Below are positions 1 to 58,345 of a stretch of DNA of 64,000 nucleotides, in pieces. The stretch comes from a virus, in IMG/VR virus record IMGVR_UViG_3300035703_004050, positions 1 through 64,000 of that record; one strand, written 5' to 3'. Numbering within the stretch: position 1 is the stretch's first letter; each line of letters begins with the position of its first letter. The notes beneath the pieces were generated by a model. The model did not search any database. It saw only the letters and a list, made by a program, of their open reading frames with translations, and was not told the DNA's origin. A program made the position numbers and the translations under genes.

Positions 1-543
1 AATTGGCAAAATGCTTTCTTAGGTTATTTTATCCCTGGTAATTTAGATGTAAAAGCTGTAATTGATACACTGTCAAAAAAACAAATAGTTGGTGTTGCTA
101 ATGGGTATGCAGAATGGGGACCACGAGCGTTAGGTAATAGAAGTTTACTTGCTGATCCTCGTCCATCAAACATTAAAGATAGAGTTAACGAAATAAAGCG
201 TCGTCAAATGTATCGCCCATTTGCTCCAGCAGTACTAGAAGAACACGCAGACAAATATTTTAAATTAAAAAAAGCATACGACTATCGTTACATGCAATAT
301 GCAGTGGACGTTAAAGACGATTATCCATATCCTTCTACATGTCATGTTGATAATACTGCTCGGGTGCAAATAGTACCAAAAGACGGTAGCAATATACGTA
401 ATATATTAGAAGCATGGTATGCAAAAACAAAGTGTCCTGTATTATTAAACACTAGCCTAAATATACGAGGTGAACCTATAGTAAATGATAGGGTAGATGG
501 GATACGCTTTGCTAAAGAATATGATATAACAGTTATTAGTTAA
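1..543 (+). CDS. Carbamoyltransferase, NodU/CmcH family (C-terminal part, 5' cut by window edge)
   Basis: The reading frame is open from base 1, and 180 codons are visible. Around codons 31-50 it carries the family signature GYAEWGPRALGNRS followed by LADPR, then RPFAPAVLEE at about codon 71. Members transfer a carbamoyl group from carbamoyl phosphate to a sugar or antibiotic hydroxyl; the visible part is the C-terminal YrdC/Kae1-like region. It sits beside glycan-modifying genes, so a sugar substrate is likely. The end overlaps the convergent minus-strand gene by 8 nt. The N-terminal half lies outside the window. Confidence 0.9.
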   Translation, partial: NWQNAFLGYFIPGNLDVKAVIDTLSKKQIVGVANGYAEWGPRALGNRSLLADPRPSNIKDRVNEIKRRQMYRPFAPAVLEEHADKYFKLKKAYDYRYMQYAVDVKDDYPYPSTCHVDNTARVQIVPKDGSNIRNILEAWYAKTKCPVLLNTSLNIRGEPIVNDRVDGIRFAKEYDITVIS

Positions 544-1330
544 AGTTAGGATTAGTGAAATTAAATTTAACTCCAATTAAATTTTCTATCTTATTTCTAA
601 AATTTTGAGTTGCTGTTAAACATTCTTCAAATGCATTTTTATACACAATACTTTTATCAAATAAATCATCAGTAACACTATTTGCAATTATAGGCGAATG
701 TTTCATAGTGAAAAACTTACTGGGCAATGTTTCACTAATTACAAAAGTTTTTTTACCAAGTAATGTAGACCAATAGGCGCCGTGATAACTACTAGTAAAA
801 ACGTATTCGTGATCTGCAATACAGTCTAGTATATCTGTTACATTTTTATTTTTGTTGTTAATCGCAGTGTGTTCGTATGGAAAATTTATTGGTCTTTTCC
901 AATGATTAATTACTAAAAATTTCTTTGTAGGGTTTGTTGCTAAATTAGTAAAAATAGAGTTATGTAAGACACTTGGGCAAGGTGTCCAATCATATCCTGT
1001 TACATTGTTATCTCTAATACCAAATAAGTCGTATGGTGCTGTTATATTATTGGTAAAATTAGGACTAATACCAACTCCCCACACTATTTTAAACCTTGCA
1101 TTTACTTTTTCTAAAATTTTCTCAATTGAACTAGTAAAATGATCGGTTGAAAATATTGCACCTCCCCCAATAAAAAGTACATCAACATCTATATTTGGAA
1201 TATTATCGTTGTAAACGTCTAGTATTATTCCATGTTTATCTTCTGTTGAATAATGTCTTATAGTGCTGTATAAATCTCCAGCGTTTTCAAAATCTTGCCT
1301 AAACAAGTAAGCATATTTTAGTTTTGACAT
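536..1330 (-). CDS. Polysaccharide pyruvyl transferase-like protein
   Basis: 264 aa. The N-terminal NAGDLYS resembles the GD-N start of the family. It is followed by DVLFIGGGAIFS, a WGVGIS strand, DLFGIRDNN, and the C-terminal TSSYHGAYWSTLLGKK, which fits the nucleotide/donor-binding half of PF04230-type pyruvyl transferases. It probably modifies a surface glycan. Start chosen at 1330 because AAGGAAA lies just upstream; an in-frame extension to 1381 has no such site. It overlaps the upstream minus-strand gene by 13 nt, so the two are probably translationally coupled. Confidence 0.75.
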   Translation of the reverse strand: MSKLKYAYLFRQDFENAGDLYSTIRHYSTEDKHGIILDVYNDNIPNIDVDVLFIGGGAIFSTDHFTSSIEKILEKVNARFKIVWGVGISPNFTNNITAPYDLFGIRDNNVTGYDWTPCPSVLHNSIFTNLATNPTKKFLVINHWKRPINFPYEHTAINNKNKNVTDILDCIADHEYVFTSSYHGAYWSTLLGKKTFVISETLPSKFFTMKHSPIIANSVTDDLFDKSIVYKNAFEECLTATQNFRNKIENLIGVKFNFTNPNFN

Positions 1331-12182: not shown

Positions 12183-13331
12183 ATGGCATTGACATATCTT
12201 GAAGATTATATTGAATTCCTTTATGGCTCGTTGAATAAAAATGGAGAATCTGCCTCCGTTTTATACAAGCACCTAACATCAAACGATACGATTAAACTGG
12301 CTACATATGATCGTAGCCCAGTTACAAGTATGGGAAGTTTTTGTGCTAAAACAAGAATTCAAAAAGAGCAGGAATGCTTGACTGATCGCCAAGTTGATCT
12401 AGCAAACAAGATAGTCTACAAATACAAGAGACAATTGGCAACTATTGGAGTGACCTTACCTGATGAATCCGTTGGGTTGCCACTACGTCATGGTGTTAGG
12501 AAGATTGACCGTTCCAAATATTTGAACCATAACGTTGACGAAAAAACAGTCACGTTAAAGTTTCCATATGATCCCGCTAAGATTAGTTCCCTGCACAATT
12601 ATGTCCAAAACAGTGCAGGAAATGTTGAGTGGGATAACACCAAAAAGGAATGGAAGATGGACTTAACAGAGGGCAATCTTCTAAAAATCTTGGAGTTATT
12701 CAAAAGCGAAGATCTAAAGATCTCTGAAACTTTAGAACCGTATATTGTTGACTTGTATAGTGCAACACCACGCAACTTGCCTTCGCTCTACTTACGCGAT
12801 AATGCAATGCGTTTGGAAAACTGCCATAGCAGCGTTGAAGATTATCTAATTTCTAAAAATTGGAATCAAGATGATGTAAGCAACTTGTCTTATTGGGCAT
12901 CAATAGCAGCAGGTCTTGCACTGCGTATTGATGAATCTGTAAAAGAAGAGTTGTCTAAACACTATACTAATAGTGTAGTTGATATTATAACTCAAAGAAA
13001 AGTAACACTACCAAGCAACAATCAACCTGATGGCGCTTGGTACAATACTTTGCTTGAAGCAAACCGTGCTTTAAACAAGAATCCTTGGATACTGCATCTA
13101 AACTGGTGGACAAATAAAACAGATTGGTCACCGTTTAGTAATTTGATTCGTCCTCTTACAAAGGATAGAAATCAATTTAGGGTATCCAAAGAATTTGCCG
13201 ATCTTCTAACTAGCAATCAAAATGCAATTGTCATTGTTGATTCAGTAGTAGGCAGAGATGCTGTACGTAATTTTATTGAAAACAACTCGATAAAAATTGT
13301 ATATATAAGTGATATCGGGCATGATCAATGA
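12183..13331 (+). CDS. Protein with HARP-like DNA-binding segment, upstream of UvsW
   Basis: 382 aa. Around residues 118-165 the text VTLKFPYDPAKI, followed by VEWDNTKKEWKMDLT, resembles the HARP/SMARCAL1-type element (F-P-Y-D ... W-D...K.W). That element recognises branched DNA and is often attached to annealing helicases. No ATPase motif is present. Its stop overlaps the start of uvsW (ATGA-type), so the two are co-translated and may form a bipartite remodeler. The start has no ribosome-binding site. The rest of the sequence is unrecognised. Confidence 0.75.
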   Translation: MALTYLEDYIEFLYGSLNKNGESASVLYKHLTSNDTIKLATYDRSPVTSMGSFCAKTRIQKEQECLTDRQVDLANKIVYKYKRQLATIGVTLPDESVGLPLRHGVRKIDRSKYLNHNVDEKTVTLKFPYDPAKISSLHNYVQNSAGNVEWDNTKKEWKMDLTEGNLLKILELFKSEDLKISETLEPYIVDLYSATPRNLPSLYLRDNAMRLENCHSSVEDYLISKNWNQDDVSNLSYWASIAAGLALRIDESVKEELSKHYTNSVVDIITQRKVTLPSNNQPDGAWYNTLLEANRALNKNPWILHLNWWTNKTDWSPFSNLIRPLTKDRNQFRVSKEFADLLTSNQNAIVIVDSVVGRDAVRNFIENNSIKIVYISDIGHDQ

Positions 13332-14794
13332 AAAAATGTAAACTAGTAATTAAGGATGAGGTAAATGTAAAGTTTGAAAATCTTGACCTTGAAATGCGTA
13401 AGCTATTAAGCAAGAAGTTCAAATATCAAATACCATATGCTAGGCATTTACCAGCAGTGAGACTAGGGCGTTGGGATGGGTGCGTAGCCTTCTTTCAATT
13501 AGGAGGCAGCACCTATCTTAATCTTTTGCCTGAAATATTTCCTATACTAGATCAAAAAGGATGGGAAATTGATTTAGAAGATTTGCGCCAAGAGAAGCCA
13601 GACTTCAACTTTGCAACAGTGACCGAAGATTCGTTTAGTCACATAAGTTGGCCTAAAGGACATCCACAAGCAGGGCAACCAATTGTTTTACGAGACTACC
13701 AAGTTGAAGTAATCAATGGGTTCTTATCTAACCCTGGATGCTTGCAAGAAGTTGCTACAGGCGCAGGCAAAACTATTATGACTGCTGCACTCAGTAGTCG
13801 TGTTGAACCATATGGTCGTAGCATTGTTATTGTTCCAAACAAAAGCTTAGTAACACAAACAGAAGCGGACTACATCAATTTAGGATTAGATGTGGGAGTG
13901 TTTTTTGGTGATAGAAAAGAGTGGAACAAGACACATACTATTTGCACATGGCAAAGTCTCAATAGCTTGTTTAAGAAATCACGCGATGGCGATATTGAAG
14001 ATCTAGCTACATTTGGTATTGAAAAGTTTGTCGATGGCGTAGTTGCAATCATTGTTGACGAAGTGCATATGGCTAAAGCTGATGCACTTAAGACACTTCT
14101 TACTGGCGTAATGTCTAACATACCGCTGCGTTGGGGATTAACTGGAACTGTACCCAAAGAAGATTTTGAGTTTATGTCTATCAAGTGCAGTTTGGGAGAT
14201 GTTGTTAATAGACTTGCTGCTAGCGAACTACAAGATAAAGGAGTACTAGCACAATGTCACGTACAAATCCTACAAACGCAAGAGACACAAGACTATAAGA
14301 ATTATCAAAGCGAAGTTGCATATCTAGTTACTGATTCAAAACGTTTGGATTGGATTGCAGATCAAATAAAGCTAATGCGTAAAACAGGTAACACACTTAT
14401 ATTGGTAGACCGTATTAATTGCGGACAGGAACTTATTTCAAGGATAGATGATGCAGTATTCGTATCTGGTAACACGAAGGCAAGCCAGCGTAAGGAGGAA
14501 TATGACGAGGTTGCTGAAGCTAGCGACAAAGTTATCGTTGCTACTTATGGGGTTGCTGCTGTTGGTATTAATATTCCCCGTATTTTTAATCTTGTTCTTG
14601 TTGAGCCTGGTAAGTCTTTTGTCCGTGTTATCCAATCAATTGGTCGTGGCATACGTAAAGCAGAAGATAAAGACTTTGTACAAATTTGGGACATCACAAG
14701 CAACTGTAAATTCTCAAAGCGACATCTTACCAAAAGAAAAACCTTCTACAATGAAGCAAATTACCCATACACAATACAAAAGGTAAATATTTAA
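13328..14794 (+). CDS. uvsW: UvsW-type ATP-dependent DNA helicase
   Basis: 488 aa, superfamily 2. It shows the N-terminal UvsW domain (RHLPAVRLGRWDGCVAFF), then the Q-like LRDYQVEVINGF, Walker A VATGAGKTIMTAA (about residue 140), DEVH Walker B (about 243), LTGT motif III, and motif VI QSIGRGIRKAE. T4 UvsW drives branch migration and R-loop unwinding and switches replication to the recombination mode. Length is close to the T4 protein. It overlaps the HARP-like gene by 4 nt and the convergent amidinotransferase gene at its 3' end. Confidence 0.95.
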   Translation: MKKCKLVIKDEVNVKFENLDLEMRKLLSKKFKYQIPYARHLPAVRLGRWDGCVAFFQLGGSTYLNLLPEIFPILDQKGWEIDLEDLRQEKPDFNFATVTEDSFSHISWPKGHPQAGQPIVLRDYQVEVINGFLSNPGCLQEVATGAGKTIMTAALSSRVEPYGRSIVIVPNKSLVTQTEADYINLGLDVGVFFGDRKEWNKTHTICTWQSLNSLFKKSRDGDIEDLATFGIEKFVDGVVAIIVDEVHMAKADALKTLLTGVMSNIPLRWGLTGTVPKEDFEFMSIKCSLGDVVNRLAASELQDKGVLAQCHVQILQTQETQDYKNYQSEVAYLVTDSKRLDWIADQIKLMRKTGNTLILVDRINCGQELISRIDDAVFVSGNTKASQRKEEYDEVAEASDKVIVATYGVAAVGINIPRIFNLVLVEPGKSFVRVIQSIGRGIRKAEDKDFVQIWDITSNCKFSKRHLTKRKTFYNEANYPYTIQKVNI

Positions 14795-15999
14795 TCAAAC
14801 CCTAAATCAACTATTTCATTAGTTCTGTTAGGGAAATAATCTTCCATTACCCCTTCTCGATACAAGTCTAGGGTAATACAGTGTAGTCCACCATCCCAAA
14901 AATATCTGTGTCGCCACGGTACGATAATTGGTTCTATTTTGTGCTTCTTGAAAAAAGCAAACGCTGTTTCGTTGTAGTTGTTAACACAAACATGATGCTC
15001 GTCTAGCATCAATACGTTGACATCAAAAACCGATTCTTCACAAAACCCAACCCAATCATTTAACCATGTTTCTACAAATTGTATAAATTCATCGTTATTT
15101 TCTTCACCAGGTACCCACCATTTGCCATTTACTTTATTTTTAATTTTTATAAATCCTTCAATAAGGTCCCATGATTGATTTGGTAAGTAGCAAATATCCC
15201 AATTTGGAAATGTTTTTTCATACTGTTGAATTTCGTAAAGACTTAAAATTACTCCTGGTTTAAGAGTATGAAATGATCCATCATTGTGCCCACCAATATT
15301 TAAGGTATTAAATCTAATATCAGTGTGATTTTTTTTTAAATATTCAATAACTTGATTAGAAATATTTTGTTCTCTATAATCGATATACAAATCTTTTCCT
15401 ACCAAAGTAGTTGAAGGTGGTGATGGTAATGTTAAATTTTTAATTCGATTCTTGTATTCCTCTTTAATTTCTGGTTTAATTTTTTCAAAATAATTTGGTT
15501 TTAGATAATCTTCATAAGTTAACCAATCTTTTCCTGCATGTATGTTAAATTCTTTTTCGCTAATTTTTTTTGATAAATCTGCTGGCAAAGATTGATACAA
15601 ATCAAGATCTTCCTTGTTATAATTTTTAAAAATGTTTATAAATTCGCCGTTTGCGTCACTGCCGTTACAATACAATTTGTTTCCTAACACAAATTGCCAA
15701 TCTCTTGGTTGTAAAGGTGCTCGAGGAATGTTTTTTACTTTTCCCCTGTCGATAAAATTCATTATTGATAAATTTAAATCAATGTCTGGTCTTAATACGT
15801 TACATCCAAAATCTTTTAAAACTTTTTCATAGTACTCTAAATCCTCTAGAGTTTCCTCAGTAATTTTAGTTAATGCTGATCTAATTTTATCATTTTTAAT
15901 GTCATGGTAAAAGCTAACAGGATAGCAATTTCCTAACACAACAGTTTTTAAAGTGTGCCATTTGCACCAAACATTATATTGGTTTTTATCTTTTAGCAT
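14791..15999 (-). CDS. Amidinotransferase family protein (pentein fold), paralogue A
   Basis: 402 aa. Catalytic landmarks are the His motif GGHNDGSFHTLKPGVIL, a conserved acidic DVNVLMLD strand, and the C-terminal WDGGLHCITLDL, where Cys is the nucleophile of amidinotransferases/deiminases (GATM, StrB type). The family moves an amidino group from arginine to an amine. A second copy lies just upstream. Protein identity is very high at both ends while codons differ, so both copies are under selection. Substrate may be a sugar amine or a small amine. Confidence 0.85.
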   Translation of the reverse strand: MLKDKNQYNVWCKWHTLKTVVLGNCYPVSFYHDIKNDKIRSALTKITEETLEDLEYYEKVLKDFGCNVLRPDIDLNLSIMNFIDRGKVKNIPRAPLQPRDWQFVLGNKLYCNGSDANGEFINIFKNYNKEDLDLYQSLPADLSKKISEKEFNIHAGKDWLTYEDYLKPNYFEKIKPEIKEEYKNRIKNLTLPSPPSTTLVGKDLYIDYREQNISNQVIEYLKKNHTDIRFNTLNIGGHNDGSFHTLKPGVILSLYEIQQYEKTFPNWDICYLPNQSWDLIEGFIKIKNKVNGKWWVPGEENNDEFIQFVETWLNDWVGFCEESVFDVNVLMLDEHHVCVNNYNETAFAFFKKHKIEPIIVPWRHRYFWDGGLHCITLDLYREGVMEDYFPNRTNEIVDLGFD

Positions 16000-16026
16000 C
16001 TTAGTTTTCTTAATATAAAATACATT

Positions 16027-17250
16027 TTAAATTTCAGTAATTGAATTAGTTCTATCAGGGAAATAATCTTCCATTACACCTTCTCGATATAATTCAAGAG
16101 TAATGCAATGCAATCCACCATCCCAAAAATATCTATGACGCCAAGGAACAATTATAGGTTCAATTTTGTGTTTCTTAAAGAAAGCAAAAGCAGTTTCATT
16201 GTAGTTGTTAACACAAACATTATATTTGTCTAACATCAAAACATTTACATCAAACACACTTTCTTCACAATACCCTACCCAGTCATTTAACCAAGTTTCT
16301 ACGAAATTAATAAATTGATCGTTATCTTCTTCACCAGGTACCCACCATTTGCCATTTACTTTTTTCTTCATTTTTAAGAAATCTGATACTGCATGAAAAG
16401 ATTGATTTTCCAAATAACATATTTCCCAATTTGGAAATGTTTTTTCATAATTTTTTACTTCTTCAATGCTAATAATTACTCCTGGTTTAAGAGTATGAAA
16501 ACAACCATCGTGATGTCCTTCAATTACTAGTCTATTAATTCTTAAATCTTGACAATATTCTTTGTAAGTTTCGCAGATAAAATTACAAGTTTTATTACTA
16601 CCGGTAGTATCTAAATATAAGTCTCTTCCAACTAATGTTGAGTTTCCAGCATCGTCGTAAGTATTAATCATAAATGATGTAATTTCATCAAGTATATTTT
16701 GTTCAATATTTTCAAAATTGTTGTTGTAATAATTTTCGTAAGTTGGCCAACTTGATCCTTTTAAAATCTCATATTGATTTTTGGTTAACTTAATTACTTT
16801 ATCAGTGATGTCTGGTTTGCGATTTTTAAAATTCTCAAAATTGATAATGTCTTTACTATTATATTGATATAATAATTTTGCAATTTCGCCGTTTGCGTCT
16901 AATCCTTGTAGATACAACTTGTTGCCAATAATAAATTGATAATCTCTAGGTTGTAATGGTGAACGAGGAATTCCTTGTCTAAAGCTATAGTATTCAGTGC
17001 TGTTAACATTAGCAAAATTTAGTATAGATAAGTTTTTATCTACGTGAGGTCTTAGTACAGTGCATCCAAAATCTTTTAAAACTTTTTCGTAGTACTCCAA
17101 ATCTTCTAATGTTTCCTCGGTAATTTTTGTTAATGCCGATCTAATTTTGTCATTTTTAATATCTTTGAAAAAATTTGGAGAATAACTATTTCCTAACACA
17201 ACAGTTTTTAGGGGGTCCCACATATTCCAAACATTATATTGGTTGTTCAT
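16027..17250 (-). CDS. Amidinotransferase family protein (pentein fold), paralogue B
   Basis: 407 aa. It shares KNDKIRSALTKITEETLED and KVNGKWWVPGEE with copy A. The catalytic set is intact: GHHDGCFHTLKPGVI and WDGGLHCITLEL. The middle third (residues about 130-230) diverges strongly and probably sets the acceptor specificity. AAAGGTAAAG precedes the ATG. The gap to copy A is 27 nt, so they form one transcript. In a phage the role is unclear: glycan decoration or arginine-derived metabolite synthesis are both possible. Confidence 0.85.
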   Translation of the reverse strand: MNNQYNVWNMWDPLKTVVLGNSYSPNFFKDIKNDKIRSALTKITEETLEDLEYYEKVLKDFGCTVLRPHVDKNLSILNFANVNSTEYYSFRQGIPRSPLQPRDYQFIIGNKLYLQGLDANGEIAKLLYQYNSKDIINFENFKNRKPDITDKVIKLTKNQYEILKGSSWPTYENYYNNNFENIEQNILDEITSFMINTYDDAGNSTLVGRDLYLDTTGSNKTCNFICETYKEYCQDLRINRLVIEGHHDGCFHTLKPGVIISIEEVKNYEKTFPNWEICYLENQSFHAVSDFLKMKKKVNGKWWVPGEEDNDQFINFVETWLNDWVGYCEESVFDVNVLMLDKYNVCVNNYNETAFAFFKKHKIEPIIVPWRHRYFWDGGLHCITLELYREGVMEDYFPDRTNSITEI

Positions 17251-20584: not shown

Positions 20585-20864
20585 TGATCCCGCCACGTGG
20601 CATCGCAGTGTTCATAGTCCATATAGCGGTACTGCGTATCTTAATCCAACTTTTAGTCCATGGGAAGAATGGTTCGCATGGTACCCTGTAAAGAAATATT
20701 TTTATTTTGAAGATGCTGCATTACTTGGTATAAAAGCTTATCGTTGGATATGGTTAAAAAAGATTAACAGACGTAAAGTAACGCATGGCCCTGCTTTCGT
20801 AGGTGTATCTAAAACTGATTGGGAATATGCTACATTAATGGAATTACTAAAACATGGACATTGA
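20571..20864 (+). CDS. Small hypothetical protein (WYPV-type)
   Basis: 97 aa from MGLSDDPATWH; GGAG lies upstream at suitable spacing. The segment WEEWFAWYPVKKYFYFED resembles the preceding protein's core. Function unknown. Its end overlaps the DnaE-like gene start by 11 nt. Confidence 0.75.
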   Translation: MGLSDDPATWHRSVHSPYSGTAYLNPTFSPWEEWFAWYPVKKYFYFEDAALLGIKAYRWIWLKKINRRKVTHGPAFVGVSKTDWEYATLMELLKHGH

Positions 20865-21423
20865 TATTGACATTGGCAATCGAGATAACTTACTCAAGTT
20901 AATCAAACATGTTCCTGCTGCTATTAATAGAAACAATACCTGGTCTAAACACAATACAGGTGTTTATGTAACACAGATACCAGTTGATCCTATATCTAAC
21001 TTTGCTACTATCGATTATCAAACAGCAGAAGATATTGGATATATCAAACTCGACATTCTCAATCAATCAGTATATGAACAAGTCAAAGATGCAGAACATT
21101 TAGATAAGTTACTTTCAACTGAACCAATGTGGGAAATGCTGCAATACAAGGAATTTGTAGATCAAGTAGTTCATATAGGTAATCATTATGATACTATACA
21201 GCGTATACCAGAACCTATTAATAGCATTCCCCGTATGGCGATGTTACTCGCTATTATTAGACCAGCAAAACGACATTTAATTGGTAAAACGTGGAAAGAA
21301 GTTGGATTAGATGTTTGGAATAAACCAGCAGATGATGCTTATTACTTCAAAAAATCACATGCGGTTTCTTATGCACACTTAGTTAAGATACATATGAACT
21401 TGTTATGTAGGCTTGCGGACTAA
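20854..21423 (+). CDS. Miniature DnaE-like protein (DNA polymerase III alpha palm/finger elements)
   Basis: 189 aa. In order it shows MDIDIDIGNRDNLLKLI (like the PDxDIDF..RD palm Asp pair), GYIKLDILNQSV (like the K-x-D-x-L-G third Asp strand), MAMLLAIIRPAKR (like AL-RPG), and FKKSHAVSYAHLVKIH (like the F-N-K-S-H-A-A-Y-A-L finger). All three catalytic Asp positions seem kept, but the PHP, most of the fingers, and the beta- and tau-binding parts of the usual ~1100 aa protein are missing. A structural relic, a regulator, or a very small nucleotidyltransferase are possible. Confidence 0.75.
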   Translation: MDIDIDIGNRDNLLKLIKHVPAAINRNNTWSKHNTGVYVTQIPVDPISNFATIDYQTAEDIGYIKLDILNQSVYEQVKDAEHLDKLLSTEPMWEMLQYKEFVDQVVHIGNHYDTIQRIPEPINSIPRMAMLLAIIRPAKRHLIGKTWKEVGLDVWNKPADDAYYFKKSHAVSYAHLVKIHMNLLCRLAD

Positions 21424-21777
21424 TTGAATCATCTTACGTTTAGTACGTTTACCAGCTATTTCATGTAAACGTACAGCATGTCCTGCAAGTATTTCACACT
21501 CTTTAGTAATTAAAGTTTTAACGCAATATCTAAATTGTAACCAATCATCTTTTAGGAATATATTAATGGGTATCATACGATTTGATTCCCACCACCATTG
21601 ATTAGCTAATTCTAAAAACATTTTCTTATGATCGTCGGTTTTTAATGTATTGTAATCATATATTGTAGTTACATCAACGTCTTGATTTTGTACTATACAC
21701 ACGTATTCAATATCAGAATAACGGATGATGGCAAAAAAAGGATATTTTTCTAATAATTGTTGTAAAGCTTCATCCAT
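21403..21777 (-). CDS. Hypothetical minus-strand protein
   Basis: 124 aa. It begins MDEALQQLLEKYPFFAIIRY and has YVCIVQNQDVDVTTIYDYN and a basic C-terminus (AGKRTKRKMIQLVRK). I do not recognise it. It is the only minus-strand gene in the replication block, converging with and overlapping the DnaE-like gene by 21 nt. Confidence 0.8.
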   Translation of the reverse strand: MDEALQQLLEKYPFFAIIRYSDIEYVCIVQNQDVDVTTIYDYNTLKTDDHKKMFLELANQWWWESNRMIPINIFLKDDWLQFRYCVKTLITKECEILAGHAVRLHEIAGKRTKRKMIQLVRKPT

Positions 21778-21851: not shown

Positions 21852-22832
21852 ATGAATTCTATCCAAGAAGCTATACGTTCAGTTATACCTGTAAAGCATA
21901 AAAATGCAAGTAAAGGATGGATCAGTTTTAATGCTCCATGCTGTACCCACAATGGCGAAACACCGGACAAAAAAGGTCGCGGTGGTATGCATTTTGATAA
22001 TAGCGGTGTTGTTTATCATTGCTTCAATTGTGGTTATAAAACAGGATGGCGACCTGGGTTGCATTTTGGGTTAAAAATACGCAAGCTTATGGAATGGATG
22101 GGCATGGACGAAGGTCTCATAATGAGATTACAGTTTGATGCACTACGGGATTTGGATGAAGAAGTTGTATACCAAGAGCGTATCAAAGAAGCAATACAAT
22201 TTGAATCACGTGAACTTCCAGAAAACACAATTGATTTAAAAGATGCAACCAATCAAGATGCGTTAGATACAATACAATATTTAAATAATAGAGGGTTTTA
22301 TCTAAATGATTTTGATTGGATGTGGAGTAGTTCTGAAGGTTATAATCGCAGAGTAATAATTCCATATACATGGGAAAACAAAGTAATTGGATACACTGCT
22401 CGCAGCATTGATTATCAAAGAAGTAAAGGAAAGTATATACAACACGTTGGAAGCGATTATGTATTTGGCATAGATCAACAAAAGCGAGACAGTAAATTTG
22501 CTATTGTAGTGGAAGGTGTGTTTGACGCAATACCACTTAACGGACTTGCAGTTCTTACTAATGAAGTTAGTGATAAAAAAGCAGAAATAATCGATACGTT
22601 AGGTAGAGAAATTATTGTTGTTCCAGATAAAGATAAATCTGGTAAACACTTAGTTAATGCTGCATTAAAGTATGGTTGGAGTGTAGCATTTCCAGATTGG
22701 CAGGAAGATGTCAAAGATTCTGCCGATGCTTGCTTACGTTATGGTAGACTTTATACAATGCGTTCAATACTTGCAACAAAGCAGTCAAACAAGCTAAAGA
22801 TTGAACTCTATAAAAAAAAGAATAGGTTTTAA
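21852..22832 (+). CDS. 61: DNA primase, gp61 type
   Basis: 326 aa, similar in length to T4 gp61. An N-terminal zinc-binding region uses PCCTHNGE and YHCFNCGYKTG. The TOPRIM core shows FAIVVEGVFDAI with the catalytic Glu, then VVPDKDKSGKHL as the metal-binding DxD. It makes RNA primers for lagging-strand synthesis with the gp41-type helicase, which follows after one inserted gene. Start fixed by the leaderless promoter. The next gene begins 3 nt after the stop. Confidence 0.92.
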   Translation: MNSIQEAIRSVIPVKHKNASKGWISFNAPCCTHNGETPDKKGRGGMHFDNSGVVYHCFNCGYKTGWRPGLHFGLKIRKLMEWMGMDEGLIMRLQFDALRDLDEEVVYQERIKEAIQFESRELPENTIDLKDATNQDALDTIQYLNNRGFYLNDFDWMWSSSEGYNRRVIIPYTWENKVIGYTARSIDYQRSKGKYIQHVGSDYVFGIDQQKRDSKFAIVVEGVFDAIPLNGLAVLTNEVSDKKAEIIDTLGREIIVVPDKDKSGKHLVNAALKYGWSVAFPDWQEDVKDSADACLRYGRLYTMRSILATKQSNKLKIELYKKKNRF

Positions 22833-22835
22833 ATA

Positions 22836-23561
22836 ATGTGGCATTTTCATGGGTGTAGTTTAAGCACAGACAACTACGTTAAAAACAAAGATGATGCCTA
22901 CCCACGATTAGTAGGCAAACACTTCAATCAAACAGTTGATATAAAGGCAGTTATGGGTAACTCAAACCAAACTATCTTTTCGTGTGCAATTGACTCTTTG
23001 TTAGACGATTCTGTTAACACGGTGTTTGTGCAAATTACTACCCCCGGGAGGCAAGCATTTTATCACGATTACAAATGTATAACATCTACTCTAGGTAAAA
23101 CAAGCTATGAAATTCCAAATAAAAAGTGGCAAACATTTCTAGACGTTTTCAACTTACTTGATCAAGAATACAATCAGTTTGTTCTATTGTCACATTATGT
23201 GCCGCGGCTTGCTAAACTTGCAAGCATAACAGGAAAGCATCTACATTTTATTAATGGATATATGACTATTGATCCTATATTTTTTAGCGACAACAAAGAT
23301 GTAAATTACTATTTGTTAAACGACGATACAAAACGTATACTAAACTTTAGCAATAAACCAAACGATAATATAGCGGCACAAATTGTTGACATAAAGCAGA
23401 AGCTAGCTTGTATGAAAGATACAAGTTGGGTAACGATAGTTAACCCGTTAAGGGACTATGCAGTTGATAAAGGGTTAGATGGATCGCACCCAGGGGTAAA
23501 GTCAAATAAAATTTTTGCAGAGATAATTATTGAATACTTAGAAAAAAAGCATGATAGATAG
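22836..23561 (+). CDS. SGNH-hydrolase-like protein between primase and helicase
   Basis: 241 aa. The N-terminal MWHFHGCSLSTDNYV fits SGNH block I with GCS, and the C-terminal DGSHPGVKSNKIFAE supplies D-x-x-H. The middle is not distinctive. It has the same block pattern as the larger SGNH-like protein at 7450. The stop overlaps the helicase start by 11 nt, so it is co-expressed with replication genes although its role is probably unrelated to them. Confidence 0.7.
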   Translation: MWHFHGCSLSTDNYVKNKDDAYPRLVGKHFNQTVDIKAVMGNSNQTIFSCAIDSLLDDSVNTVFVQITTPGRQAFYHDYKCITSTLGKTSYEIPNKKWQTFLDVFNLLDQEYNQFVLLSHYVPRLAKLASITGKHLHFINGYMTIDPIFFSDNKDVNYYLLNDDTKRILNFSNKPNDNIAAQIVDIKQKLACMKDTSWVTIVNPLRDYAVDKGLDGSHPGVKSNKIFAEIIIEYLEKKHDR

Positions 23562-24939
23562 CAAATACTCGGTAGATCTACAAAAACTATTCTTAGAAAT
23601 AATGTTGGCTGATGCACAATCATTTGTGCGTGTACAAAACATTTATGATCCCGTAAACTTTGATAAGAGCTTACGTGCAGCAGCAAACTTTTTGCAGGAG
23701 TATAGTAAGGATTATAACTCGTTGCCAACTATTGAACAGATTAAAGCTAGTTCAGGTGTAAACTTGCAAAAGCTTGATGCTGTGGATGAAAGTATGGTTG
23801 ATTGGTTTATGGATGAGTTTGAGTCTTTCACTAGACATGAAACGCTGTTGCGTGTAATTCTTAAGAGTGCCGATCTTATTGAAAAAGGCGAATATGATCC
23901 AATTGAAAAGCTAGTCAAAGATGCAGTGCAAATTTCATTAACAAGAGATTTAGGAACTGACTACTTTGATGATCCCCGTGCTAGGCTTATGAAGCTTAAA
24001 TCTAACAACGGGCAAATGAGTACTGGTTGGCCAACACTCGATAGCAAACTGTATGGCGGTTTTAATAGAGGCGAACTAGAAATCTTTGCTGGCGGATCTG
24101 GTGCAGGTAAATCTTTGTTTATGCAAAACCTAGCTGTTAACTGGATGCTAGCTGGTATTGATGGTGTATACATTACATTAGAGCTTAGTGAAGAACTTTG
24201 TTCTATGCGTATTGACAGCATGATTACAGGTGTTGCAACTAAGGAAATCTTCAAAGACCTCGACACAGTTGAAATGAAGATCAAGATGGTTGGCAAAAAA
24301 TCTGGTAATTTACGTATCAAATATATGCCGGCACAAAGCAATGTAAATGACTTACGTGCATATTTGAAAGAATTACAAGTACAAACTGGTAACAAGATTG
24401 GTTATTTGTGCGTAGATTATCTTGATCTTCTAATGCCAGTTAGCGCAAAGGTTAGCCCATCAGACTTGTTCGTTAAGGACAAATATGTATCAGAAGAGCT
24501 ACGTAACTTAGCAAAAGAATTAAACATTGTACTTGTTACAGCTTCCCAGCTTAACAGAGGTGCAGTTGAAGAAGTTGAATTTGATCACAGTCACATCTCG
24601 GGTGGTATTTCTAAGATCAATACAGCAGACAACGTATTTGGTATCTTTACAAGCCGTAGTATGAAGGAGCAAGGGCGTTATCAACTACAGCTTATGAAAA
24701 CACGTAGTTCTAGCGGCGTTGGACAAAAAGTTGAATTGGAATTTGATCTTAATTCAATGCGTATTATTGATAATGGCGAGGATACCCAAAGTAGTTTTAA
24801 AAAGCCCAGCAGTTCTATTATGGATAGCATTAAAAATAAGACAAATGTTACCCCAAGTGAGGTTACAGACGTTCCAAAAGTAAATGCTGAGGTACAAAGT
24901 GCTAAGTTAAAGCAGATGCTTGCCAATTTGAAAAAGTAA
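23551..24939 (+). CDS. 41: Replicative DNA helicase, DnaB family (gp41 type)
   Basis: 462 aa, near the T4 gp41 length. The RecA-like core begins around residue 160 (STGWPTLDSKLYGGFNRGE). Walker A is GGSGAGKSLFMQ (about 181), Walker B is IGYLCVDYLDLLM, and the sensor/arginine region is SQLNRGAVEE with GGISKINTADNVFGIF. It unwinds DNA 5'-3' ahead of the fork together with the gp61 primase. The N-terminal 130 residues form the helical collar. Confidence 0.93.
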   Translation: MIDSKYSVDLQKLFLEIMLADAQSFVRVQNIYDPVNFDKSLRAAANFLQEYSKDYNSLPTIEQIKASSGVNLQKLDAVDESMVDWFMDEFESFTRHETLLRVILKSADLIEKGEYDPIEKLVKDAVQISLTRDLGTDYFDDPRARLMKLKSNNGQMSTGWPTLDSKLYGGFNRGELEIFAGGSGAGKSLFMQNLAVNWMLAGIDGVYITLELSEELCSMRIDSMITGVATKEIFKDLDTVEMKIKMVGKKSGNLRIKYMPAQSNVNDLRAYLKELQVQTGNKIGYLCVDYLDLLMPVSAKVSPSDLFVKDKYVSEELRNLAKELNIVLVTASQLNRGAVEEVEFDHSHISGGISKINTADNVFGIFTSRSMKEQGRYQLQLMKTRSSSGVGQKVELEFDLNSMRIIDNGEDTQSSFKKPSSSIMDSIKNKTNVTPSEVTDVPKVNAEVQSAKLKQMLANLKK

Positions 24940-57622: not shown

Positions 57623-57812
57623 GCTTTTCCTCAGTTACAGCTTAATTAAAAAGATTAAGGAAGTAACTGGGAAAGAGTTTGATTGGAAAGCAGGAACAGG
57701 TGAGGGCTGGCGAGTAGAAAGAGATACTGACGCGAGCTATGTTTTCAATATTATTTTTGATAATGATGAATCTAAAATTATGTTTTTACTAAAATATGGA
57801 AATGGAAAATAA
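57609..57812 (+). CDS. Small hypothetical protein
   Basis: 67 aa from a TTG start inside the clpS end, with GGTGAAAG upstream. KLFLSYSLIKKIKEVTGKEF and SYVFNIIFDNDESKIMFLLK. No family. Overlaps the exonuclease ATG by one base. Confidence 0.65.
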   Translation: MSQNKLFLSYSLIKKIKEVTGKEFDWKAGTGEGWRVERDTDASYVFNIIFDNDESKIMFLLKYGNGK

Positions 57813-58345
57813 TGGACGTAATGTTTGACCTCGAGACACTTGACACAAAACCGAGTGCAGTTATTCTTAGCCTTGGTGCTATTAGATTTGATCCCCTAGA
57901 AGACGGAATCGATCACAATGACGGACGTTTAAGTATGCGCCTAGAGATTGATCCACAATCGGGTATGGGAAGAACTATTTCTGAAGACACAATTGCTTGG
58001 TGGGCTACACAAAGCAAGGAAGCGCAAGACGCTGCATTTGGTGACGATAACAGAATTCCAGTAATTGAGGCAGTAGAAAAGTTTCACAAGTTTGTATGGG
58101 GTTGTGATAGGATATGGAGTCAAGGCAGCTTTGACGTAAACATTATGGAGCACCTATATACAAGTATTGGAAAACCATATACTTGGCAATATTGGCAAGT
58201 ACGTGATAGTCGTACACTGTTTGACTTCGTAGATGGTGCTATGGATCGTACTAAGCATCACGATGCAGTAGAGGATGCTATTGCACAAGCAGAAGCAGTA
58301 CAACGGGCATTGCGTAAAATTGGTTGGAATGGAACGCGACTTTAA
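57812..58345 (+). CDS. DEDDh 3'-5' exonuclease, Rv2179c-like (DexA-type)
   Basis: 177 aa. Exo I MFDLETLDTKPSAVILSLGA (Asp, Glu), Exo II SQGSFDVNIMEH (Asp), Exo III HHDAVEDAIAQAEAV (His, Asp) are all present. The family degrades RNA or single-stranded DNA; T4 DexA is an analogue. Overlaps its neighbours by 1 and 17 nt. Confidence 0.88.
   Translation: MDVMFDLETLDTKPSAVILSLGAIRFDPLEDGIDHNDGRLSMRLEIDPQSGMGRTISEDTIAWWATQSKEAQDAAFGDDNRIPVIEAVEKFHKFVWGCDRIWSQGSFDVNIMEHLYTSIGKPYTWQYWQVRDSRTLFDFVDGAMDRTKHHDAVEDAIAQAEAVQRALRKIGWNGTRL

What the first reader, a model, noticed from the sequence alone, without database searches (positions are those of the whole stretch)
20854..21423. A 189-residue miniature DnaE-like protein keeping the palm aspartates
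DIDIDIG..RD, KLDIL, AIIRPAKR and KKSHAVSYAHL appear in the same order as in bacterial Pol III alpha (DIDF..RD, K-D-LGL, AL-RPG, NKSHAAAYAL), but the protein is about one sixth the length. T4-like phages use a family B polymerase, so a shrunken C-family protein is unexpected. It lies just upstream of the primase and helicase genes.
Basis: partly seen in the sequence, partly recalled or inferred. Interest (0 to 1): 0.75.

Follow-up and report, generated by a model that had tools for sequence, protein, structure and literature searches.

The report
Half of a split phage polymerase
This small phage gene encodes one of two pieces of a stripped-down bacterial-type DNA polymerase (Pol III) whose other piece sits elsewhere in the genomes of related phages; a 2021 survey already described this split enzyme, but nobody has shown that it works.

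Summary
The 189-aa ORF at 20854-21423 is a real, conserved relative of the C-family (DnaE/PolC) polymerase catalytic core. The three palm aspartates, K-x-D, RP and F-x-x-x-H-x-x-x-Y are invariant in 54 homologues. An AlphaFold2 model (pLDDT 94) aligns 180-186 of its 189 residues to DnaE and PolC, from E. coli residue D401 to residue 780.

It is not a self-contained miniature DnaE. It is the C-terminal half of a split palm. All 13 named phages tested also carry, elsewhere and usually tens of kb away, a ~170-aa protein with the GRGS loop. That protein ends at the position of E. coli residue 393, and this one starts at 401. All 13 also carry a family B polymerase. This split, minimal Pol III alpha was described in 2021 (PMC7824862), so the window holds a new member of a known kind.

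The N-half was not found in the window's own 72-kb record, which is a fragment.

Most likely mechanism (inferred): the halves reassemble into an accessory nucleotidyltransferase/DNA polymerase working beside the primase, helicase and family B replicase. Details not found in the papers read: the split-junction position, a fully replaced R390 (to Glu or Asp), a 141-kb non-jumbo carrier, and a conserved convergent partner gene.

The parts
20854..21423 (+). C-terminal half of the split minimal Pol III alpha (189 aa; PHROG_11778)
20857..20871 (+). DIDID: codons of D2, D4, D6 = E. coli DnaE D401, D403, D405 (palm metal-binding motif)
   Evidence: invariant in 54/54; structural alignment of residue 1 to E. 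coli 401
20950..20961 (+). HNTG (33-36) = DnaE H511...G514 motif
   Evidence: H33 and G36 invariant in 54/54; hhalign column match
21046..21060 (+). KLDIL (65-69) = DnaE K553-F-D555-F-L557, third catalytic Asp
   Evidence: K65, D67, L69 invariant in 54/54
21256..21273 (+). IRPAKR (135-140) = DnaE F-R639-P640-G
   Evidence: R136 and P137 invariant in 54/54; G641 position is A/G/S
21346..21372 (+). FKKSHAVSY (165-173) = DnaE F756-N-K-S-H760-S-A-A-Y764
   Evidence: F165, H169, Y173 invariant in 54/54
21403..21777 (-). Convergent ~124-aa gene of unknown function (PHROG_11637, WWWESNR motif, basic tail), overlapping the C-half tail to tail by 21 bp; candidate partner
   Evidence: found downstream on the minus strand in 91 of 94 C-half loci, 66 of them overlapping
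21852..22832 (+). DNA primase (gp61/DnaG-like, PHROG_47)
   Evidence: E 2.4e-36
23551..24939 (+). DnaB-like replicative helicase (gp41-like)
   Evidence: PF03796 7.1e-22, PHROG_19 1.7e-67
13328..14794 (+). SF2 helicase (UvsW position in the conserved replication cluster)
   Evidence: PF04851 2.1e-16; same place in RaK2 and CBB

Best explanation
The ORF is the C-terminal subunit of a two-protein, minimal C-family (Pol III alpha) catalytic core. The missing half of the palm, with the GRGS triphosphate-binding loop, is a second ~170-aa protein encoded elsewhere in the genome. The two chains most likely assemble into one Pol-beta-fold nucleotidyltransferase site: GRGS from one chain, D2/D4/D67 plus K65, R136, K167 and H169 from the other. 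This site would add nucleotides to a primer end during replication or repair of the phage genome, as an accessory to the family B replicase. Its place beside the primase and helicase makes primer extension and hand-off the likeliest task. Shown: homology, fold, conservation, the split point, co-occurrence of both halves, and co-occurrence with family B. Inferred: assembly, catalysis, the task, and that the window's own phage has the N-half.
For: Fold: AlphaFold2 pLDDT 93.9. The top 9 Foldseek matches are all Pol III alpha. The top 15 VIA rows are all DnaE or PolC, Z 6.1-9.2 over 180-186 of 189 residues, E. coli 400/401..780; the next unrelated row is Z 3.2. Sequence: PHROG_405 matched by 53/54 members, best 3.2e-9; hhalign against 8 full-length Pol III alphas E 3.5e-6. 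Catalytic residues 54/54; strong purifying selection. Partner: an N-half found by PF07733 over its cut-off in 8 of 12 records and by profile in 13 of 13 named phages. All 72 aligned N-halves keep GRGS and stop within two residues of the EF(L/I)(K/R/N) position that matches E. coli 393. N-half model: Z up to 11.9 to Pol III alpha over 93 residues; E. coli range 279..393. Family B polymerase in the same 13 phages. Conserved replication-gene neighbourhood. The published description of the same split enzyme is PMC7824862.
Against: R390, invariant in full-length Pol III alpha, is Glu or Asp in all 72 N-halves (71 Glu, 1 Asp). R396 falls in the split gap, and the YQEQ motif and the PHP, thumb, HhH, OB and tau-binding parts are absent, so catalysis may be altered or lost. 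The N-half is not in the window's 72-kb record, including 51 kb downstream of this gene, nor in the four 75-87-kb contigs checked, which include two of its closest relatives. By sequence alone the C-half profile does not find DnaE in the PDB, and only 7/54 members weakly match the Pfam finger model.
Confidence: 0.72

Rival explanations
1. The C-half (with or without the N-half) is catalytically dead. It is a Pol III-derived scaffold or decoy that binds replication partners of the phage or host.
For: Loss of thumb, PHP, OB and HhH parts and much of the fingers; R390 replaced by Glu or Asp in all N-halves; the phages already have a family B replicase.
Against: All three catalytic Asp plus K553, R639, H760 and Y764 equivalents are invariant across 54 homologues down to 36% identity, and GRGS is invariant in 72/72 N-halves. 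A scaffold need not keep these.
Confidence: 0.15
2. The 189-aa protein works alone as a miniature DNA polymerase.
For: It has all three metal-binding Asp on one chain and a confident compact fold. The window's record shows no N-half.
Against: It lacks the GRGS half of the palm, which always exists as a separate gene in the 13 named phages. 72 N-halves end at the mapped break, position 393, and the C-half starts at 401.
Confidence: 0.06
3. The pair is an active nucleotidyltransferase whose substrate is not a primer-template, for example a terminal or RNA-end transferase.
For: The Pol-beta fold is widely reused for such reactions (established knowledge); thumb and DNA-binding domains are missing.
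Against: The conserved place between replication helicases and primase and the retained finger motifs favour template-directed DNA synthesis.
Confidence: 0.07

Closest known systems
Split minimal DNA polymerase III alpha of group 2.2 jumbo phages (PMC7824862)
   Same: [quoted passage not shown] other Pol III domains absent; family B polymerase present; same phages (e.g. Atu_ph07).
   Different: The window's member is from an uncultured phage fragment and its partner was not seen. The position of the break (393/401), the replacement of R390, a 141-kb non-jumbo carrier and the convergent gene were not found in the passages read.
Bacterial DnaE / PolC (family C DNA polymerase)
   Same: Palm-plus-finger fold, catalytic DxD and K-x-D motifs, HxxG, RP and F-x-K-x-H-x-x-x-Y motifs, in the same order.
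   Different: About 1160 aa in one chain in E. coli, with PHP, thumb, HhH, OB and tau-binding regions; here 189 aa with only parts of residues 401-780.
CBB_328, 'truncated' Pol III alpha of Pectobacterium phage CBB (PMC5259590)
   Same: A C-family fragment of 172 aa in a relative; inferred from its size and place to be the N-half partner of this protein.
   Different: It is the other half; in the passages read, that paper did not mention the C-half (CBB_287).

Membership tests
C-family (Pol III alpha) catalytic core | Palm DxD and K-x-D catalytic triad | tested here: met
   D2, D4, K65, D67 in 54/54; structural alignment from E. coli 401
C-family (Pol III alpha) catalytic core | Overall palm/finger fold | tested here: met
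   15 of 15 top VIA rows are DnaE/PolC, Z 6.1-9.2 over 180-186 residues, next row 3.2; Foldseek top 9
C-family (Pol III alpha) catalytic core | GRGS loop in the same polypeptide | tested here: not met
   ORF starts at D401; GRGS lies in a separate gene in relatives
C-family (Pol III alpha) catalytic core | PHP, thumb, HhH and OB domains | tested here: not met
   The whole 189-aa chain aligns within E. coli 401-780
C-family (Pol III alpha) catalytic core | Template-directed DNA synthesis | not testable with these tools
   needs biochemistry
Split minimal Pol III alpha of group 2.2 jumbo phages (PMC7824862) | C-terminal unit with Mg-binding residues as a stand-alone protein | tested here: met
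   PHROG_11778 2.8e-58
Split minimal Pol III alpha of group 2.2 jumbo phages (PMC7824862) | N-terminal NTP-binding unit encoded by a distant gene in the same genome | tested here: inconclusive
   13 of 13 named phages and 16 of 24 IMG/VR records carry both, but none in the window's 72-kb fragment
Split minimal Pol III alpha of group 2.2 jumbo phages (PMC7824862) | Accompanied by a family B DNA polymerase | tested here: inconclusive
   present in all 13 named phages; not in the window's 72-kb fragment

The most novel reading that the evidence does not exclude
These phages run a two-polymerase replisome. A reassembled split C-family core, perhaps with the convergently encoded PHROG_11637 protein as a third component, extends primers laid by the neighbouring primase and hands over to the family B replicase. 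It would be the smallest working C-family polymerase, with one active site built from two chains whose genes lie about 11 kb to over 100 kb apart.
Probability: 0.2. Interest if true: 0.75.

Novelty: new member of a known kind. Interest (0 to 1): 0.38.

Why it matters
If active, it would show how little of a Pol III alpha is needed for nucleotide transfer, that a polymerase palm can be split between its GRGS loop and its catalytic aspartates, and that bacterial-type and archaeo-eukaryotic-type polymerases can share one phage replisome. It bears on the proposal in PMC7824862 that such pieces model ancestral Pol III. The proteins are small and come from cultured phages of laboratory hosts, so it is directly testable.

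Tried and rejected
Chance resemblance: rejected. Pseudogene or decay product: rejected by dN/dS 0.04-0.08 and conservation. Missing start or frameshift hiding a longer DnaE: rejected, since a stop lies two codons before the ATG (open frame of 190 codons) and most homologues start at the same place or a few residues upstream. N-half adjacent or fused: none in the C-half loci, none of the N-half ORFs runs on, no ORF matches both profiles. N-half in the window or in 63-72 kb of the record: none. PF07733 search of the window's genome: no match. PF00476 (family A) in relatives: nothing over the cut-off. C-half profile against PDB sequences: no Pol III match, attributed to the internal deletions. 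MAFFT addition of the C-half to full-length DnaE gave ragged alignments, so motif anchors, hhalign and structure were used instead. Convergent gene: no Pfam or PDB match of note. Hits in bacterial and archaeal MAG contigs were read as binned phage contigs, not tested further.

Full report
Check of the observation. The ORF at 20854-21423 (+) is an intact 189-aa frame, opening two codons after a stop. tblastn found 63 phage records with relatives below 60% identity, nearly all with genomes of 280-490 kb (RaK2, PBECO4, CBB, Atu_ph07, PA5oct, XacN1, SCTP-2 and others), and 80 IMG/VR loci. In an alignment of 54 members, the positions matching E. coli DnaE D401, D403, D405, H511, G514, K553, D555, L557, R639, P640, F756, H760 and Y764 never vary. 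Near relatives show dN/dS 0.04-0.08.

Is it C-family? The window protein alone matches the phage Pol III family PHROG_405 only weakly (E 5e-4), but 53 of 54 homologues match it, best E 3.2e-9. hhalign against eight full-length Pol III alphas gives E 3.5e-6. The clearest test is the fold. The AlphaFold2 model has mean pLDDT 93.9. Foldseek's first nine matches are all Pol III alpha. In VIA-align 2 the first fifteen rows are all DnaE or PolC, Z 6.1-9.2, aligning 180-186 of 189 residues; the E. coli rows run from 400/401/403 to 780, and the next unrelated row drops to Z 3.2. DnaE and PolC score alike, so the sub-lineage is not resolved.

The other half. PF07733, which the C-half does not match, finds a second ORF of about 170 aa over the curated cut-off in eight of twelve relatives. 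It carries G-V/L-G-R-G-S-S and stops at EF(L/I)(K/R/N), with at most one or two further residues. 72 of 72 aligned members match PF07733, best 1.2e-11, and its model aligns to Pol III alpha with Z up to 11.9, E. coli range 279..393. So the N-half ends at 393 and the C-half starts at 401: one palm cut in two between its GRGS loop and its catalytic aspartates. With the N-half profile, 13 of 13 named phages carry both halves, including those that tblastn had missed. All 13 also carry a family B polymerase; no family A polymerase passed its cut-off in the records checked. In 28 of 29 records with both halves they lie on the same strand, most often 29-55 kb apart (the records are related, so this is not 28 independent events).

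Departures from Pol III. R390, invariant in the full-length set, is Glu in 71 and Asp in 1 of 72 N-halves. Y340/F341 are Leu (or Val), P381 is Ser (or Ala). R396 lies in the gap. The stretch between D405 and H511 and the YQEQ part of the fingers are deleted, and PHP, thumb, HhH, OB and tau-binding parts are missing. These are reasons for caution about activity.

The window's own phage. Its record is a 72-kb fragment. It shows neither an N-half nor a family B polymerase. That includes 51 kb downstream of the C-half; in several relatives the N-half lies 85-120 kb away, so absence is not shown. The closest homologues (L001-L007) are also on fragments, at most 78.5 kb long.

Neighbourhood. SSB, UvsX, a DnaQ-like exonuclease and an SF2 helicase upstream, and primase and DnaB downstream, recur in Phosso, PHA46, CBB, RaK2, PBECO4 and others, not every gene in every one. 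Between the C-half and the primase lies a convergent minus-strand gene (PHROG_11637, 21403-21777). A homologue is found downstream on the minus strand in 91 of 94 C-half loci, and 66 overlap the C-half's end by 4-87 bp. Two exceptions are truncated and the third (Slicko01) has a divergent minus-strand gene at the same place. It has no Pfam or PDB relative of note. Whether it belongs to the enzyme is unknown.

Mechanism. Shown: homology, fold, split point, conservation, co-occurrence. Inferred: the two chains reassemble one Pol-beta-type active site and add nucleotides. The place beside the primase suggests primer extension before hand-over to the family B enzyme, by analogy with DnaE and PolC in Bacillus subtilis (own knowledge, not checked here). 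PMC7824862 suggests synthesis of one strand or repair.

Known or new. PMC7824862 (2021) describes a phage-specific minimal Pol III alpha in group 2.2 jumbo phages, split into two proteins encoded by distant genes and accompanied by family B. PMC5259590 (2017) had noted a 172-aa truncated Pol III alpha in phage CBB. The window ORF is therefore a new member of a known kind. Four details here were not found in the papers read: the residue-level break, the complete replacement of R390, a 141-kb circular carrier outside the jumbo size class (Alishewanella phage Slicko01), and the convergent gene.

Noticed in passing
window 21403-21777 (-): A ~124-aa minus-strand gene (PHROG_11637; WWWESNR core, basic tail) sits convergent to the C-half in 91 of 94 loci, 66 overlapping tail to tail by 4-87 bp, inside an otherwise plus-strand cluster.
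   Followed up: partly
window 14791-17250 (-): Two similar 402- and 407-aa genes in tandem on the minus strand are inserted between the SF2 helicase and the genes leading to the C-half; no Pfam match. By eye they resemble amidinotransferases (untested).
   Followed up: no
L198 / OQ508956.1 (Alishewanella phage Slicko01, 141 kb circular): Both halves of the split Pol III plus a family B polymerase occur in a phage below the 200-kb jumbo limit.
   Followed up: partly
PHROG_13169 (463 positions) and PHROG_7513 (461 positions): Two other phage families match the N-half close to their C-terminal ends (340-409 and 359-438), which could mean further Pol III alphas split near the same site in other phages.
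   Followed up: no
window 57812-58345 (+): A 3'-5' exonuclease-like protein (PF16473, E 3e-32) lies 36 kb downstream of the C-half; several relatives have a DnaQ-like exonuclease close upstream of it instead.
   Followed up: no
L211-L222 (genome contigs): C-half relatives lie in 12 contigs binned into bacterial and archaeal MAGs, one of 335 kb; these look like phage contigs wrongly binned.
   Followed up: no
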